A DNA stretch of 64,000 bases from an uncultured Monoglobus sp. Its GTDB lineage: Bacteria; Bacillota; Clostridia; Monoglobales; Monoglobaceae. Every line of letters starts with the position of its first letter. The first letter of the stretch is position 1. Where the stretch lies: the NCBI GenBank assembly GCA_947624305.1, contig CANQKC010000005.1:1-64000 (forward strand), in the 5' to 3' direction. Below the pieces are notes generated by a model, which searched no databases, was not told where the DNA came from, and saw only the letters and a list, made by a program, of their open reading frames with translations. A program made the translations under genes and the position numbers. This document shows positions 1,069 to 23,353 of the stretch, in pieces.

Positions 1069-2621
1069 TGAACGCGGTAATATACGCGAGATATTCCTCG
1101 GATCATCAACGTGAGGAAAGCATAGAGGGGCAGCTCAGGGAGTGCAAGGAATATGCCGACAGGAATGATATGGTCGTTATCAAGACATACATAGACAGGG
1201 CGCTATCCGCAAAGACAGACAACAGGCCCGAGTTTCATAGAATGATCAATGACAGCACCAAAGGATTATTTGATATAGTTCTTGTATGGAAACTTGACAG
1301 ATTTGCGAGAAACAGATATGATTCAGCCCACTACAAGGCAATGCTGCGCAAGAACGGAGTTAAAGTCGTATCGGCAAAAGAGGCAATATCCGAAGGTCCG
1401 GAAGGAATAATTTTAGAATCCATGCTTGAAGGCTACGCCGAATACTACTCCGCGGAATTAGCTCAAAAAGTCACCAGAGGCATGAAAGAAAACGCGCTTA
1501 AAGGTAAATACAATGGCGGCATTGTGACGTTCGGATACGTTGTTGACGAAAATAAATGTTTTCAGGAACATCCTGTTAACGCAAAGATAGTACAAAATAT
1601 TTTTGAGCGATATTCGAGCGGTGATGGCGTAAAAGAGATTTTGCAAAGTCTCCAAGCGCAAGGTGTCAAAAACCAAACAGGCAAAATTCCGAATTATAAC
1701 TTTGTGACAGGAATACTCAAAAACAGGCGATATTTGGGCGAGTATCGCTTTCGAGACACGGTAGTTGAAAATGTTTTTCCGATTTTGGTTTCACAGGAAG
1801 TATTTGATAAATGTCAAAAACGTCTCGCATTCAACCATAAAAAACCGGCTCATTTCAAAAGTGTTAAAGAAAAATATTTGCTGACCGGTAAGATATACTG
1901 CGGACATTGCGGAGACCATATGTGCGGCGTCAGCGGTTCCGGTAAAGCCGGAGTTAAGTACAGATATTATCATTGCAACTCCGCAAAAACCAAGAAAACC
2001 TGTAACAAAAAACGAATCAAAAAGGATTTGATCGAAGAAATAGTAATCAATGCTATTTTTAAAATTCTCAATGATTCTGATTTAATCAACAATATCGTTG
2101 ACACCTGTTATGCAATGCAAACCAATGAAAATACCGAGCTTTTTATAATGGAAAACAGCCTTAGGCAGACAGAAAAGGAAATTGAAAATATAATTACCGC
2201 CATCAAGAGAGGCGTGATTTCTGACGCAATAACATCAGCACTTAAACACTCGGAGGCAGAAAGAGACAAACTTAAAAATCAAATTGCTCTCGAAGAGATT
2301 TCCCATCCAGTTTTGACAAAGGAACAAATCAGATATTGGTTAAAACAATTGAGGAACGCAAATCGGACCGACAATAAAGAAATGCAAGCGCTTATCGACA
2401 CTTTTGTAAATTCAATATATGTTTACAATGATAAGCTGCTGATTATGTTTAACTACCGCGACGGAGAACGCTGCATCACAGCCGAAGAAGTAAAAGAGTA
2501 TATGAAAAATAAAGAGAACCCCGATAATCAAAACGATTACCGGAGTTCGTCTATGTGTGTTAATGGTGGACCTTCAGGGACTCGAACCCCGGACCGACCG
2601 GTTATGAGCCGGTTGCTCTAA
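1068..2621 (+). CDS. Large serine recombinase (site-specific integrase)
   Basis: This 517-residue large serine recombinase catalyses DNA strand exchange through a covalent phosphoserine. The resolvase domain starts at once: YARYS places the likely nucleophile at Ser10 with Arg8 beside it, and LDRFARN carries further catalytic arginines. A recombinase domain follows (about 160-260), then a zinc ribbon (CGHCG near 280 and a later C...C pair), and a coiled-coil region (about 340-420). The frame does not stop before the neighbouring tRNA gene: its last 16 or so residues (GPSGTRTPDRPVMSRLL) are antisense translation of the tRNA, and the TAA lies at 2619-2621. This is expected if the attachment site overlaps the integrase 3' end. 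Start overlaps the XRE stop. Confidence 0.92.
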   Translation: MNAVIYARYSSDHQREESIEGQLRECKEYADRNDMVVIKTYIDRALSAKTDNRPEFHRMINDSTKGLFDIVLVWKLDRFARNRYDSAHYKAMLRKNGVKVVSAKEAISEGPEGIILESMLEGYAEYYSAELAQKVTRGMKENALKGKYNGGIVTFGYVVDENKCFQEHPVNAKIVQNIFERYSSGDGVKEILQSLQAQGVKNQTGKIPNYNFVTGILKNRRYLGEYRFRDTVVENVFPILVSQEVFDKCQKRLAFNHKKPAHFKSVKEKYLLTGKIYCGHCGDHMCGVSGSGKAGVKYRYYHCNSAKTKKTCNKKRIKKDLIEEIVINAIFKILNDSDLINNIVDTCYAMQTNENTELFIMENSLRQTEKEIENIITAIKRGVISDAITSALKHSEAERDKLKNQIALEEISHPVLTKEQIRYWLKQLRNANRTDNKEMQALIDTFVNSIYVYNDKLLIMFNYRDGERCITAEEVKEYMKNKENPDNQNDYRSSSMCVNGGPSGTRTPDRPVMSRLL

Positions 2622-6131: not shown

Positions 6132-7961
6132 GTGGCGGACATTAACCGAAACAAAAAGATGGAAATGCCCCGAATGGGCGGCCCGAAGGTCGGCGGCGTC
6201 GCGAGGTTTTCAAATAACGAGCGCGCCAAGAACCAAAAGGGAACGCTTCTGCGCCTTATGGCGGTGTATCTGAGGTTCAAAAAACCGGTGCTTGCCGCGG
6301 TCGCGTTGACACTGATCTCGTCGGGCATCTCGGTGCTGATCCCGCTGTATGTCGGAAAGGCGTTCAACGCGTTTATTCCGGAGCTTATGAAGGTCGATCT
6401 CGGTCTGCTTTACGCGATGACGGCTGTGATCGTCGGCCTTTATGTGACCAACTGGATAATAAATACGATAAGCTCGGTGACGATACTCAAAATATCTCAG
6501 CGGCTCGTTTCGGCGCTGCGCTTTGAGCTGTTCTCAAAGCTTCAAAAGCTGCCGCTGTCGTTCTTTGACACCACACAGAGGGGCGACACAATGAGCCGCC
6601 TCACCAACGACACCGACACCATAAGCGGCACGATCGCGCAGTCGGCGACACAGCTCGCTTCGGCGGCGCTGACGCTTATCGGCTCGTTTGTGATAATGCT
6701 TTCGCTCAGCGTTCCGCTGACTCTGACCGTGCTTGTGTGCGTTCCGATGGTGTTTTTGCTGACCAATGTCATCGCCTCGCGGAGCAGAAGGTATTTTTAC
6801 AAGCAGCAGCGCGCCCTCGGCGAACTGGGCGGCGTTATCGAGGAGAGCATATACGGCCTTAAAATGATCAAGACATTCTCAAAGGAGGATGCGAAGCTCA
6901 ATGAGTTCGCCGAAATAAACGAAAATCTGCGCTCAAGCGGCACGGGCGCGCAGACATGGGCGGGATATATGATGCCGCTGATGAATATTATAAACAACCT
7001 GACGTTTGCGATAACCGCCACGGTCGGCGGAATTTTATGTGCCAAGCACGGCCTGCTTATCGGCACGGCGGTCAGCTTTATGACATACTCAAAGCAGTTC
7101 GCCACGCCGCTTAACTCGATCGCGGGACTTTTCAACAATATTCAGTCGGCGCTCGCGGGAGCCGAGCGAGTGTTTGAGGTAATGGACGAGGCGGAGGAGC
7201 CGCCCGACGGTGACGACGCGCGTTCCATGGACGATATGAAGGGCGGGATCGAGTTTAAAAACGTGTGCTTTTCATATATCCCCGGAAAGCCGGTGCTGAA
7301 AAATATCTCGTTCAAGGTGCGTCCGGGCGAGAACGTCGCGCTGGTCGGCGAGACGGGATCGGGAAAGACCACGATCATAAATCTGCTCACGAGGTTTTAT
7401 GACGCGGACAGCGGCGAAATTTTGCTTGACGGCGTGAATATCCGAGACATCCGCCGCGAAAGCCTCGAAAAATGCTTTTCGGTCGTGCTTCAGGATACCT
7501 GCCTGTTTACCGGCACAATACTTGAGAACATACGTTATTCGCGCCCCGAGGCAACGGAGGAAGAGGTCAAAAATGCCGCGAAGCTGGCGAGGGCCGACGG
7601 GTTCATCCGCCGTTTGCCGAACGGCTATAACACCGTTGTGTCGGGCAGCCGCGACAGCCTGAGCGAGGGCCAGCGGCAGCTCATCGCGATAGCCCGCGCG
7701 CTGCTCCACAGCAGCCCCGTGCTTATACTCGACGAGGCCACGGGCTCGGTCGACACCAAAACCGAGAAGGACATTCAGCGCGCGCTGCTCAATCTTATGG
7801 AGAACCGCACGGGAATAACGATCGCGCACCGCCTGTCAACGATCCGCGACGCGGACAACATAATCGTGATACATAACGGCGAGATCTGCGAGAGCGGAAA
7901 TCACGCCGAGCTTATGGCCCAAAAGGGCAGATACTACCGCGCCAACATGGCGGCCGGGTAA
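6132..7961 (+). CDS. Heterodimeric ABC exporter, catalytically complete subunit
   Basis: This 609-residue half-transporter partners the 4424 gene. I place the start at GTG 6132, one base past the upstream stop and behind GGAGGTGG, although the frame is open further back. After a polar N-terminus of about 45 residues come six membrane segments, then an ATPase domain with Walker A GETGSGKTT, an altered signature LSEGQ (normally LSGGQ), Walker B LILDEATGSVD with the catalytic Glu, and the switch His in TIAHR. Intact catalytic residues here and lost ones in the partner, together with the altered signature, give one good and one degenerate ATP site. A strong terminator follows. Confidence 0.92.
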   Translation: MADINRNKKMEMPRMGGPKVGGVARFSNNERAKNQKGTLLRLMAVYLRFKKPVLAAVALTLISSGISVLIPLYVGKAFNAFIPELMKVDLGLLYAMTAVIVGLYVTNWIINTISSVTILKISQRLVSALRFELFSKLQKLPLSFFDTTQRGDTMSRLTNDTDTISGTIAQSATQLASAALTLIGSFVIMLSLSVPLTLTVLVCVPMVFLLTNVIASRSRRYFYKQQRALGELGGVIEESIYGLKMIKTFSKEDAKLNEFAEINENLRSSGTGAQTWAGYMMPLMNIINNLTFAITATVGGILCAKHGLLIGTAVSFMTYSKQFATPLNSIAGLFNNIQSALAGAERVFEVMDEAEEPPDGDDARSMDDMKGGIEFKNVCFSYIPGKPVLKNISFKVRPGENVALVGETGSGKTTIINLLTRFYDADSGEILLDGVNIRDIRRESLEKCFSVVLQDTCLFTGTILENIRYSRPEATEEEVKNAAKLARADGFIRRLPNGYNTVVSGSRDSLSEGQRQLIAIARALLHSSPVLILDEATGSVDTKTEKDIQRALLNLMENRTGITIAHRLSTIRDADNIIVIHNGEICESGNHAELMAQKGRYYRANMAAG

Positions 7962-7962
7962 C

Positions 7963-8007
7963 AAAAAAACGCTCCGCGTTTGTCAGCGGAGCGTTTTGTG
8001 TTTTTTT
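7963..8007. terminator. Bidirectional terminator
   Basis: A perfect 10-bp stem, AACGCTCCGC (7968-7977) with GCGGAGCGTT (7986-7995), is flanked by an A-run on the left and a T-run on the right. It can therefore stop both the ABC operon and the convergent symporter gene. Confidence 0.9.
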
Positions 8008-9535
8008 AGTCGTTCATTTCGGAGACGGCTTCAAAGTCGTCTATGATCTCTTTTTCGGGGGCCTTGGTGAGAAGGCTTACGATTATGATAGCGAGAAGGC
8101 CTGTGATGAACGCGGGAAGCAGCTCATAGATCGCGAACAGACCGCCGAGCTTGGCGATACCGTACTTCCAGATGAATACCATGGCGCCGCCCGCGACCAT
8201 GCCCGCCAGCGCGCCCCATTTGGTCGTTCTCTTCCAGAACAGCGAGGCAAGCATAACCGGGCCGAATGACGCGCCGAAGCCCGCCCACGCGAACGACACG
8301 ATGCCGAATACCGAGCTTTCGGGGTCGCGCGCCAAAATTGCCGCGACGATCGCTATGGCGACAAGCGTAAATCTCGCGATGATCATTGTTGTTTCCTCGC
8401 TCATCTTGGGGAACAGTTTTTCCTTAACAATGTTCTGCGAAACGGATGAGGAAGCGGCCAGAAGCTGAGAGTCCGCGGTGGACATTGTGGCCGCCAGAAT
8501 TCCGGCAAGGATAACGCCCGCGATGAGAGCGGGGATAACGCCAAATCCGCTCAGAAGCTTTGAAATCTCGATGATAACGCGCTCAGAGTCGGCAAGCGGA
8601 GCGATAACGCCGTTTGAGACGAGGCCCATGCCTATGATGCCGATGAACACGGCGACGCCCAGCGAGATAACCACCCAGATCGAGGCGACGCGTCTTGAAA
8701 GCTTGAGCTTTTTCGCGTCCTCGATCGCCATAAACCTAAGCAGGATGTGGGGCATACCGAAGTAGCCGAGGCCCCATGCCAGCATTGAGCAGCTGCGGAA
8801 CCAGCCGTATACCTCCGAACCGCCGGTCTCTGGAACATATATATTTGTCAGACTCAGATAGCCCGGGATCTGCTTGGCGTTTTCGATAACCTGTCCGAGG
8901 CCGCCGGCCTGAACCGTTCCGAAAATCAAAACAACGATAAGCGCGATAGACATTATGACAGCCTGCAAAAAGTCGCTGGTGCTGGCCGCCAGAAATCCGC
9001 CGAGCATTGTGTAGATAATGATTATCGCCGCGCATACGATCATCGCGCCCAGATAGCTGACGCCGAACAGCGAGTTGAACAGCTTGCCGCAGGCCGCGAA
9101 GCCCGAAGCGGTGTAGGGAACGAAGAAGATGATGATAACGATCGCCGCGATAACGCTGAGCATTCTCGACTTGTCCTTAAATCTTTCGGAGAAAAACGCG
9201 GGGATCGTAGCCGCGCCTATGCGGCTCGAATAGTGGCGCAGTCTCTTGGCGACGATAAGCCAGTTCAAATATGTACCGACTATAAGTCCGATTGCTGTCC
9301 ACGACGCGTCTGCGAGACCGGTCAGATACGCGAGTCCGGGTACGCCCATAAGCAGATAGCTGCTCATGTCGGACGCCTCGGCGCTCATCGCGGTTACGAA
9401 AGGACCGAGCTTTCTGCCGCCGAGATAGAAGTCGTCGGCGGTTTTGTTTCTTCTTGAAAACCATACTCCGATACCGAGAACTATGACCATGTACAGGATT
9501 ATGGAGATCATAATACAGATGTTCTGTTGAGTCAT
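8006..9535 (-). CDS. putP: Sodium/proline symporter (PutP family)
   Basis: This 509-residue integral membrane protein of the sodium:solute symporter family has about 13 hydrophobic segments. The N-terminal region (GVWFSRRNKTADDFYLGGRK, then TAMSAEASDMSSYLLMG) is the PutP signature, including the conserved Ser/Asp region that binds sodium. It imports proline with sodium. No putA or other proline catabolic gene is near, so proline may serve as an osmolyte or for Stickland-type metabolism; that is inference. AGGAGGT precedes the ATG, and a promoter lies at 9573-9601 on the same strand. The exact substrate within the family is assigned by similarity only. Confidence 0.88.
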   Translation of the reverse strand: MTQQNICIMISIILYMVIVLGIGVWFSRRNKTADDFYLGGRKLGPFVTAMSAEASDMSSYLLMGVPGLAYLTGLADASWTAIGLIVGTYLNWLIVAKRLRHYSSRIGAATIPAFFSERFKDKSRMLSVIAAIVIIIFFVPYTASGFAACGKLFNSLFGVSYLGAMIVCAAIIIIYTMLGGFLAASTSDFLQAVIMSIALIVVLIFGTVQAGGLGQVIENAKQIPGYLSLTNIYVPETGGSEVYGWFRSCSMLAWGLGYFGMPHILLRFMAIEDAKKLKLSRRVASIWVVISLGVAVFIGIIGMGLVSNGVIAPLADSERVIIEISKLLSGFGVIPALIAGVILAGILAATMSTADSQLLAASSSVSQNIVKEKLFPKMSEETTMIIARFTLVAIAIVAAILARDPESSVFGIVSFAWAGFGASFGPVMLASLFWKRTTKWGALAGMVAGGAMVFIWKYGIAKLGGLFAIYELLPAFITGLLAIIIVSLLTKAPEKEIIDDFEAVSEMND

Positions 9536-14256: not shown

Positions 14257-14285
14257 TTGACATATATTTATGAATGTGCTAAAAT
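14257..14285 (+). promoter_or_regulatory. Promoter of infC-rpmI-rplT
   Basis: TTGACA (14257-14262) and TAAAAT (14280-14285) with a 17-bp spacer. The transcript would have a leader of about 145 bases. Confidence 0.8.
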
Positions 14286-14291
14286 ATCATG

Positions 14292-14430
14292 CGTTAAATA
14301 AAGCAGAAGTTGCCGCTTCTCCCCTCAGCGAACAGCGAAAGGGCCGTAAAATTAAAATTTATTTAATTTGATTTTATATCGCGGTGTGCTTTTGCGCCCC
14401 GCGTTTTTTCGCGGTAAAATACTGGGAGGT
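14292..14430 (+). promoter_or_regulatory. Structured infC leader (likely ribosomal-protein leader)
   Basis: Between promoter and infC the RNA contains a hairpin AGAAG-TTGCCG-CTTCT near 14304-14319 and later GC-rich segments (CGCGGTGTGC...GCGCCCCGCG). infC-rpmI-rplT leaders in Bacillota are often bound by L20. The assignment rests on position and hairpins only. Confidence 0.45.
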
Positions 14431-22057: not shown

Positions 22058-22756
22058 CTATTCTTCAAGCAGCACGCAGCCGCAGAAGCCTTCCTCGGGC
22101 TGGAAACATTTTATGTAAAGGTTTTTGTCGACCTCGCGGCTGTAGCAGTGCATTTCGCGCTGGCCGCCGTTCAGCGCGACATCCGCATATACGACCAGCC
22201 ACCTCTTATCGCCGTTTGTGAATACTTCATAGAACGAGCGGTCGGTCATTTCCTCTATCGTTTTGCCCTCAATCACTTCCATCTGCTTGTTGCAGTAGCG
22301 GAAGATAAAATCAACGCCGTGGCCCGCCTCGTCAAATTTAAGCTCGATAACGCAGAACGCCACCGGCAGATCGTCAAAGCAGGAAAATTTTTGGCGGATG
22401 CGCTCATAGGTCATGCGCGACTTCTCGCGCGGGCTGTTCATTATCCGCTCGGCGTTCAGCTTGTGTTCGCCGGGAGTTCGCACCCTGCCATTGAAGGAAG
22501 CGCCGTCGCTCATAGTGTAGACGCCGTTGTTGATGTTGACGATATAATTTTCGGCCAGATACACTCCCTTGTTGACATTCAGCATGACCGCGGAGTCGGC
22601 TGTTTCGGCCGCGACAGTCTTCGCGGGGATGTATGTGTGAACGACCCGCCCGTCAACAAGGTGCAGGGCGTTGTTGCGGCCGTCTCTTTTGATATAGACA
22701 ATATCTTTGGGTTCTATTCCGCTTTTTTTAAAAAGGTTTGAACATTTATTCAGCAT
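22058..22756 (-). CDS. LytTR-like plus PAS-like regulatory protein
   Basis: This 232-residue soluble protein starts at ATG 22756, with AAGGTG at proper spacing; a GTG nine bases upstream overlaps the site and is less likely. Residues about 15-100 resemble a LytTR DNA-binding domain (DIVYIKRDGRNNALHLVDGR, later VYLAENYIVNINNGVYTMSDG). Residues about 125-225 resemble a PAS fold (LPVAFCVIELKFDEAG...FIFRYCNKQMEVIEG). No receiver domain or membrane segment is present. If right, this is a one-component sensor with the DNA-binding domain first, an uncommon order. Target and ligand are unknown. It diverges from the possible structured RNA at 22.95 kb. Confidence 0.6.
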   Translation of the reverse strand: MLNKCSNLFKKSGIEPKDIVYIKRDGRNNALHLVDGRVVHTYIPAKTVAAETADSAVMLNVNKGVYLAENYIVNINNGVYTMSDGASFNGRVRTPGEHKLNAERIMNSPREKSRMTYERIRQKFSCFDDLPVAFCVIELKFDEAGHGVDFIFRYCNKQMEVIEGKTIEEMTDRSFYEVFTNGDKRWLVVYADVALNGGQREMHCYSREVDKNLYIKCFQPEEGFCGCVLLEE

Positions 22757-22913
22757 ATTGATCACCTTCTTTTTGATGTTTACAAAATTATTATAGCATA
22801 TTACAAAATAAAAGTCAAATATTTTTTTCTAAAACAAATAAAAATATTAAAAATTATTTTTAAAAGCTTTAATTTGAAATATTAAAATTGCCGAAAATTT
22901 TTAACAAAAAACC

Positions 22914-22942
22914 TTGACTTTTAAAAATTTTTATAATATAAT
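22914..22942 (+). promoter_or_regulatory. Promoter of possible noncoding RNA
   Basis: TTGACT (22914-22919) and TATAAT (22937-22942) with a 17-bp spacer. No gene with a ribosome binding site follows for about 400 bases. Confidence 0.75.
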
Positions 22943-22947
22943 ATGAT

Positions 22948-23290
22948 TAAAACTCAATAATAATTTCGCGTAAAATATTTGTAATGATTAAATACAGCGA
23001 AAGGAGGGCGGTTTTTTAACAATTCGTGTCCAAACGCGCGGAATTATTATTGGAACGATAAAACAAATCGGTTTGAATTTTGCGCGTCGGAATTATAAAG
23101 CTGCTTTGATGTGTAACAAATTCACCACAACCAAATAAGCGCGAAAGCTCGTAGGCGCGGCACATTCCGCAGGTACTTTTAACAAAAGTCTCAGCCCGCG
23201 GAGGCAGTCGATTTTCAATCAAAGGCGCATAATTTCAAATAAAGTGATTTTTAAACAAAAAACGGCGGCTGATCAACGCCGTTTTTTTGC
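22948..23290 (+). ncRNA. Candidate structured RNA of about 340 nt
   Basis: In the 588-base gap between the LytTR-like gene and 23354, a good promoter and a strong intrinsic terminator (23261-23288) bracket a segment without a credible ORF. It can form several local hairpins: CGAT/ATCG near 23056-23070 inside an outer ACGCGC/GCGCGT pairing (23034-23039 with 23082-23087), GCGG/CCGC near 23157-23169, and ACTTTT/AAAAGT near 23174-23188. I compared it by eye with tmRNA, RNase P, 6S, SRP and common riboswitch consensuses and found no match. It could be a free small RNA or a terminating leader for the gene at 23354. Confidence 0.4.
23261..23288 (+). terminator. Intrinsic terminator of candidate RNA
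   Basis: AACGGCG (23261-23267) pairs with CGCCGTT (23277-23283), and a run of seven T follows. It lies 66 bases before the next start codon. Confidence 0.85.
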
Positions 23291-23353
23291 TGCCTTAAAA
23301 TAATGTCACGAAATTAATATTCCCGAATAGAATAATTCAGGAAGGTGATTTTT

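What the first reader, a model, noticed from the sequence alone, without database searches (positions are those of the whole stretch)
22914..23290. Promoter-to-terminator transcript of about 340 nt without an ORF
A -35/-10 pair with 17-bp spacing and a strong intrinsic terminator enclose a segment with several hairpins and no credible coding frame. It lies before a spore/wall locus. By eye it matches none of the common RNA families. It may be a new small RNA or a regulatory leader that terminates before 23354.
Basis: partly seen in the sequence, partly recalled or inferred. Interest (0 to 1): 0.65.

Follow-up and report, generated by a model that had tools for sequence, protein, structure and literature searches.

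The report
Small RNA predicted to target mgsA
A rabbit-gut Monoglobus bacterium carries a previously undescribed, roughly 340-letter regulatory RNA with its own on and off signals, and its conserved parts look built to stick to the start of the message for methylglyoxal synthase, a sugar-stress enzyme.

Summary
A -35/-10 pair (11 of 12 matches, 17-bp spacer) at 22914-22942 and an intrinsic terminator ending at about 23288 bound a transcript of about 340 nt with no conserved reading frame and no Rfam match. The unit, from -10 box to terminator, is conserved in two other Monoglobus MAGs (94% and 77% identity) and in none of the other family, order or class genomes searched. It is a standalone RNA, not a leader of the spore genes: it has its own terminator, IS200-like transposase sequence adjoins both sides of this junction in one relative, and five relatives keep the spore gene without it. 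It is divergent from a LytTR-PAS regulator gene. New here: two conserved segments (23122-23137, 23150-23161) are antisense to the 5' leader of mgsA (methylglyoxal synthase), in register, with 25-28 intermolecular pairs in all three species and one compensatory change. A blind scan of 81% of the genome ranks the mgsA leader first. Corrected for all gene starts, p is about 0.02; conservation adds to that. Most likely it is a new trans-acting antisense sRNA of mgsA. Expression and the sign of regulation are untested.

The parts
22914..22942 (+). Promoter of the RNA, TTGACT-17-TATAAT
   Evidence: 11 of 12 consensus matches; -10 and -35 kept in G010 (17-bp spacer) and G006 (18-bp spacer)
22949..23288 (+). 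Noncoding RNA of about 340 nt (ends predicted)
   Evidence: 94% and 77% identical in G010 and G006; fold z -2.4 to -2.7; no shared ORF; no Rfam match
22953..23053 (+). 5' domain closed by a long helix (22953-22971 with 23035-23053)
   Evidence: Pairs with probability near 1 in all three species
23052..23069 (+). Invariant linker GGAACGATAAAACAAATC leading into the second long-range domain
   Evidence: Invariant in three species
23122..23137 (+). Antisense segment A (TCACCACAACCAAATA), pairs with UGUUUGGUUGUGGUGA of the mgsA leader
   Evidence: Unique exact complement besides itself in each of three genomes; pair table; dimer energy
23150..23161 (+). Antisense segment B (CGTAGGCGCGGC), pairs with GCCGCGCCUAUG of the mgsA leader; one compensatory change in G006
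   Evidence: Pair table; two-helix scan
23257..23288 (+). Intrinsic terminator
   Evidence: conserved in three species; 1.0% in shuffles
22058..22765 (-). Divergent 235-aa LytTR-PAS regulator, candidate controller of the RNA (association inferred)
   Evidence: Same three genomes only within the family; homologues match Pfam LytTR
22790..22818 (-). Promoter of the divergent regulator gene (TTGACT-17-TATAAT, extended -10)
   Evidence: 11 of 12 matches

Best explanation
The segment encodes a standalone, trans-acting antisense small RNA. SHOWN by sequence: promoter, terminator, absence of a conserved ORF, a conserved body in three Monoglobus species, and 25-28 conserved intermolecular pairs with the 5' leader of mgsA. 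INFERRED: the roughly 340-nt RNA is made from its own promoter, possibly under control of the divergent LytTR-PAS protein. Its CACCAC stretch touches the conserved GUGGUG loop of the mgsA leader; pairing extends into helix A (15-16 bp) and helix B (10-12 bp), opening two leader hairpins about 90-130 nt before the start codon. This changes translation or stability of the mgsA message. Repression is the likelier sign but is not established.
For: Promoter, terminator and conservation. Standalone position. The 13-nt complement of an invariant block has exactly one other perfect match in each carrier genome, each time in the mgsA leader; mgsA identity. Second segment in the right order; pairs kept with U-A to C-G and U:G to C-G changes. 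ddG -30.7, -30.8, -27.4 kcal/mol, 0 of 1500 shuffles each, 0 of 7120 upstream windows. Blind scan of 2.18 Mb ranks the mgsA leader first; 1 of 117 shuffled RNAs does as well over 1099 gene starts. The leader core is invariant across the genus; the partner of segment B exists only in carriers.
Against: Single 13-14-nt matches are common (66 in 2.18 Mb), and a Gumbel fit allows about 3 tiles at this score by chance. Only three related sequences, so conservation is not three independent events. The leader core is conserved in species without the RNA, so it is not there because of the RNA. Segment B is partly paired inside the RNA. The site is far from the ribosome binding site and modelled SD accessibility barely changes. 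No expression data.
Confidence: 0.66

Rival explanations
1. It is a real standalone small RNA, but the mgsA match is fortuitous or secondary; it acts on other mRNAs or on a protein through its hairpin domains.
For: Other invariant blocks (5' hairpin, linker 23052-23069) are not used in the mgsA pairing; 66 chance-size complementary sites exist.
Against: Two-helix pairing ranks first genome-wide and is kept in three species with a compensatory change.
Confidence: 0.22
2. It is a cis-regulatory leader or attenuator of the downstream spore/wall operon that usually terminates before 23354.
For: Same strand, terminator 65 nt before the gene; synteny in two genomes.
Against: Relatives keep the spore gene and its upstream motif without the RNA; IS200-like sequence adjoins both sides of the junction in G006; no alternative antiterminator fold was seen, the terminator forms in all three MFE structures.
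Confidence: 0.04
3. It is a short mRNA for a small peptide.
For: G006 has a 74-codon frame, and an SD-like AAAGGAGG lies at about 23001.
Against: The frame ends after 11 and 25 codons in the other two species; 1-nt indels in all frames; no Pfam or PHROG match; start codons badly spaced from the SD.
Confidence: 0.04
4. It is a decaying or non-functional transcript.
For: Narrow distribution; overall identity to G006 (75%) only moderately above the AT-rich spacer (73%) and the 4-fold sites of the neighbouring gene (59-62%).
Against: Invariant blocks, promoter, terminator, fold and antisense pairing are all kept.
Confidence: 0.04

Closest known systems
Trans-encoded base-pairing sRNAs of Gram-positive bacteria (general class; from own knowledge, e.g. 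Bacillus subtilis SR1)
   Same: Own promoter and intrinsic terminator, structured body, conserved unpaired segment antisense to a 5' leader.
   Different: No sequence family in common (Rfam); the site is about 90 nt upstream of the start codon, not on the ribosome binding site; expression not shown.
Staphylococcus aureus RNAIII of the agr system (from own knowledge)
   Same: Long structured RNA divergent to a gene for a LytTR-type regulator, C-rich loop able to pair with leaders.
   Different: Not the Rfam family; the regulator is LytTR-PAS without a receiver domain in Pfam; no peptide quorum system examined.
Clostridial cis-regulatory leaders and riboswitches
   Same: Structured RNA with a terminator upstream of a gene.
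   Different: No Rfam match; absent from the same leader in relatives; downstream gene appears separately transcribed.

Membership tests
Trans-encoded antisense sRNA | Independent transcription unit (own promoter and terminator) | tested here: met
   (sequence signals only; no RNA data)
Trans-encoded antisense sRNA | Noncoding | tested here: met
   No frame shared by three species; no protein families
Trans-encoded antisense sRNA | Conserved complementarity to an mRNA encoded elsewhere | tested here: met
   mgsA leader, three species, 25-28 pairs, one compensatory change
Trans-encoded antisense sRNA | Changes target expression by pairing | not testable with these tools
   Needs experiment
Known Rfam RNA families (4227) | Score above a family's gathering threshold | tested here: not met
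agr RNAIII-like effector RNA | Member of the RNAIII family by sequence and structure | tested here: not met
   No RNAIII match among Rfam hits
agr RNAIII-like effector RNA | Transcription driven by a LytTR protein through LytTR sites | not tested
   Neighbour is LytTR-PAS by homology; binding sites not tested
Cis-regulatory leader of the spore operon | Transcribed into, and present with, the downstream gene in relatives | tested here: not met
   Spore gene present without the RNA in G002, G003, G004, G009, G011; IS200-like sequence at the junction in G006

The most novel reading that the evidence does not exclude
The mgsA leader of Monoglobus holds a genus-wide conserved RNA element (loop GUUGUGGU), and one rabbit-gut lineage has evolved an antisense RNA against it, with a second contact (helix B) gained in the carriers. 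If so, this is a recently formed sRNA-target pair whose birth can be placed on a species tree, perhaps driven by a divergent LytTR-PAS sensor and controlling methylglyoxal production.
Probability: 0.4. Interest if true: 0.62.

Novelty: new member of a known kind. Interest (0 to 1): 0.5.

Why it matters
No small RNA of Monoglobus, and no sRNA acting on methylglyoxal synthase, turned up in the open papers searched here. If confirmed, the pair links a probable LytTR-PAS sensor to control of a toxic metabolic by-product in gut pectin degraders. It also offers a young, lineage-specific sRNA together with its target, so the gain of RNA-RNA pairing can be followed between closely related species.

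Tried and rejected
Rfam at permissive thresholds gave only chance-level hits. The 33-nt similarity to rpsK coding sequence in another family is sense-oriented and found in one distant genus only; set aside as chance. CM hits outside the three carriers at 14-28 bits rest mostly on the terminator hairpin or AT-rich stem remnants. Pattern hits in viral contigs and in a Neomarinimicrobiota MAG did not match the model. LytTR-PAS homologues in another family are divergent to a helix-turn-helix regulator across about 290 bp, with no sign of this RNA. AlphaFold of the 235-aa protein from three sequences failed, pLDDT 34. RNAduplex on full lengths was uninformative because it forces end-to-end duplexes, and single-helix scoring alone is weak, p about 0.03 per leader. 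A complementary RNA in non-carrier Monoglobus genomes was not found at up to 1 mismatch; the hits other than mgsA lie in open frames of 80 aa or more, nearly all long. Covariation of the leader hairpin is inconclusive: 90% of cells paired, but 101 of 500 shuffles do as well.

Full report
WHAT IS THERE. The finding describes the sequence correctly. A -35/-10 pair, TTGACT-17-TATAAT (11 of 12 matches), lies at 22914-22942. The stem AAAAAACGGCG/CGCCGTTTTTT with a 9-nt loop and a T run lies at 23257-23288. Only 12 sites in the whole window match at least 11 of 12 positions. All have 17-bp spacers, and two precede the L20 leader and the tRNA that Rfam recognises, so such sites behave like real promoters here. 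Shuffled sequence gives such a promoter in 1.7% and such a terminator in 1.0% of trials, and never both in 2000. Expected transcript: about 22949-23288, 340 nt.

NOT A KNOWN FAMILY, NOT A GENE FOR A PROTEIN. Rfam 15 gives no match at gathering scores, and at E up to 10 only chance hits, mostly on the terminator region. No frame is shared between species. A 74-codon frame in one relative stops after 11 codons in the window and 25 in the other relative, with 1-nt indels throughout; Pfam finds nothing and PHROGs only a chance-level hit.

DISTRIBUTION AND CONSERVATION. The genome is a Monoglobus: the two relatives that carry the RNA are MAGs titled 'uncultured Monoglobus sp.' with 'Lapin' (rabbit) isolate names. 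The RNA with promoter and terminator is 94% identical in G010 and 77% in G006. A covariance model finds nothing else at full length among 38 family, 51 order and 391 class genomes; weaker hits of 28 bits or less are essentially terminators. One exact-pattern scan of about 85,000 species genomes returned only these two plus one unrelated hit. Conservation is blocky: 83 nt lie in invariant runs of at least 12, against 21 expected, 0 of 5000 permutations. All three RNAs fold better than shuffles (z -2.4 to -2.7), with the same long 5' hairpin and terminator and a second long-range domain. Covariation inside the RNA is nearly absent with three sequences, so the inner structure is only suggested.

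NEIGHBOURHOOD. Upstream and divergent is a 235-aa protein found, within the family, only in the same three genomes. Its 43-45% identical homologues in another family match Pfam LytTR above or near the cutoff and PAS below the cutoff, so it is a LytTR-PAS regulator by homology. Downstream is a spore/wall operon: its second gene has three peptidoglycan-binding domains and resembles SleB/SpoIID. In five relatives the spore gene follows metA and two unrelated genes without the RNA, but keeps its own upstream motif. In G006 the RNA's contig ends just downstream in an IS200-like transposase gene, and a Y1-transposase gene of the same kind precedes the spore gene on another contig. The RNA is therefore not a leader of these genes.

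A CANDIDATE TARGET. The invariant, mostly unpaired block TTCACCACAACCAAA (23121-23135) was tested for complements. In each of the three carrier genomes the 13-nt complement TTGGTTGTGGTGA has exactly one other perfect match, and in all three it lies in the 5' leader of mgsA, about 90 nt before the start codon. mgsA identity is above the NCBIfam cutoffs. A second conserved block (23150-23161) pairs just upstream in the leader, in the right antiparallel order. Both helices form in the predicted dimer of each species: 28, 28 and 25 pairs in helices A and B together, ddG -30.7, -30.8 and -27.4 kcal/mol. Between species the pairing survives U-A to C-G (both sides changed), U:G to C-G, G:U or A-U, and G-C to G:U; three outer pairs are lost in G006.

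HOW STRONG IS THAT. On its own a 13-14-nt match is not significant: the RNA has 66 such sites in the 2.18 Mb of its genome that could be read. The two-part pairing is rarer. A blind scan of the full RNA against 39,232 tiles on both strands ranks the mgsA leader first, score 60; the next are at 57.5, one in a GC-rich stretch without a sense gene start and one from the terminator. A Gumbel fit would still allow about 3 tiles at that score, so the scan alone does not prove it. Against 1099 SD-bearing gene starts, 1 of 117 shuffled RNAs reaches the score, and the real RNA's second-best start scores only 50. None of 7120 windows upstream of 1780 ORFs, and none of 1500 shuffles per species, reaches the dimer energy, though the paired stretch was chosen after the seed was known. 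So p is about 0.02, corrected, in one genome; conservation in three related species adds further weight.

A TWIST. The leader core UGGUUGUGGU is invariant in six distinct leader sequences, including Monoglobus relatives that lack the RNA, among them a single-contig genome. Those genomes show no complementary RNA within 1 mismatch. The leader element therefore probably has a role of its own; it has no Rfam match. The GC-rich stretch that pairs with segment B exists only in the leaders of the carriers. The simplest reading is that the RNA came to be directed at an existing leader element and a second contact was added. The leader hairpin itself is suggested, not proven.

MECHANISM. Inferred: transcription from its own promoter, perhaps under LytTR-PAS control; first contact CACCAC with GUGGUG; extension to helices A and B; opening of two leader hairpins; changed translation or decay of mgsA mRNA. 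Modelled SD accessibility changes little, so the sign is open; I lean to repression through the long duplex. No step has been shown experimentally.

VERDICT. A real, new, lineage-specific small RNA (about 0.9), most likely an antisense regulator of mgsA (0.66). It works like known trans-encoded sRNAs but belongs to no described family.

Noticed in passing
L113 about 1909-2070, minus strand (G000 contig C18 about 7915-8075): The mgsA 5' leader carries a genus-wide invariant core UGGUUGUGGU, with its own promoter TTTACA-17-TATAGT, also in Monoglobus relatives without the small RNA; no Rfam match. Possibly a cis-regulatory element in its own right.
   Followed up: partly
22058-22765 (-): LytTR-PAS regulator; its C-terminal PAS half (residues about 131-235) is 100% identical between species whose 4-fold sites have dropped to about 60% identity.
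   Followed up: partly
23300-23353: The spore gene's upstream motif (AC-16-AATAGAATA, CATAGTATA in relatives) looks like a mother-cell sigma (SigE/SigK) promoter and is kept across the genus.
   Followed up: no
23153-23185: Sense-strand 33-nt similarity (91%) to rpsK (ribosomal protein S11) coding sequence of another family; judged chance.
   Followed up: yes
14257-14416: Rfam L20 leader (RF00558) with an 11 of 12 promoter; used as a positive control.
   Followed up: yes
L034 and L004 (G006 contigs C23 and C17): IS200-like (Y1_Tnp) sequence next to the spore gene and, at another contig's end, next to the RNA; probably one insertion between them that split the assembly.
   Followed up: partly
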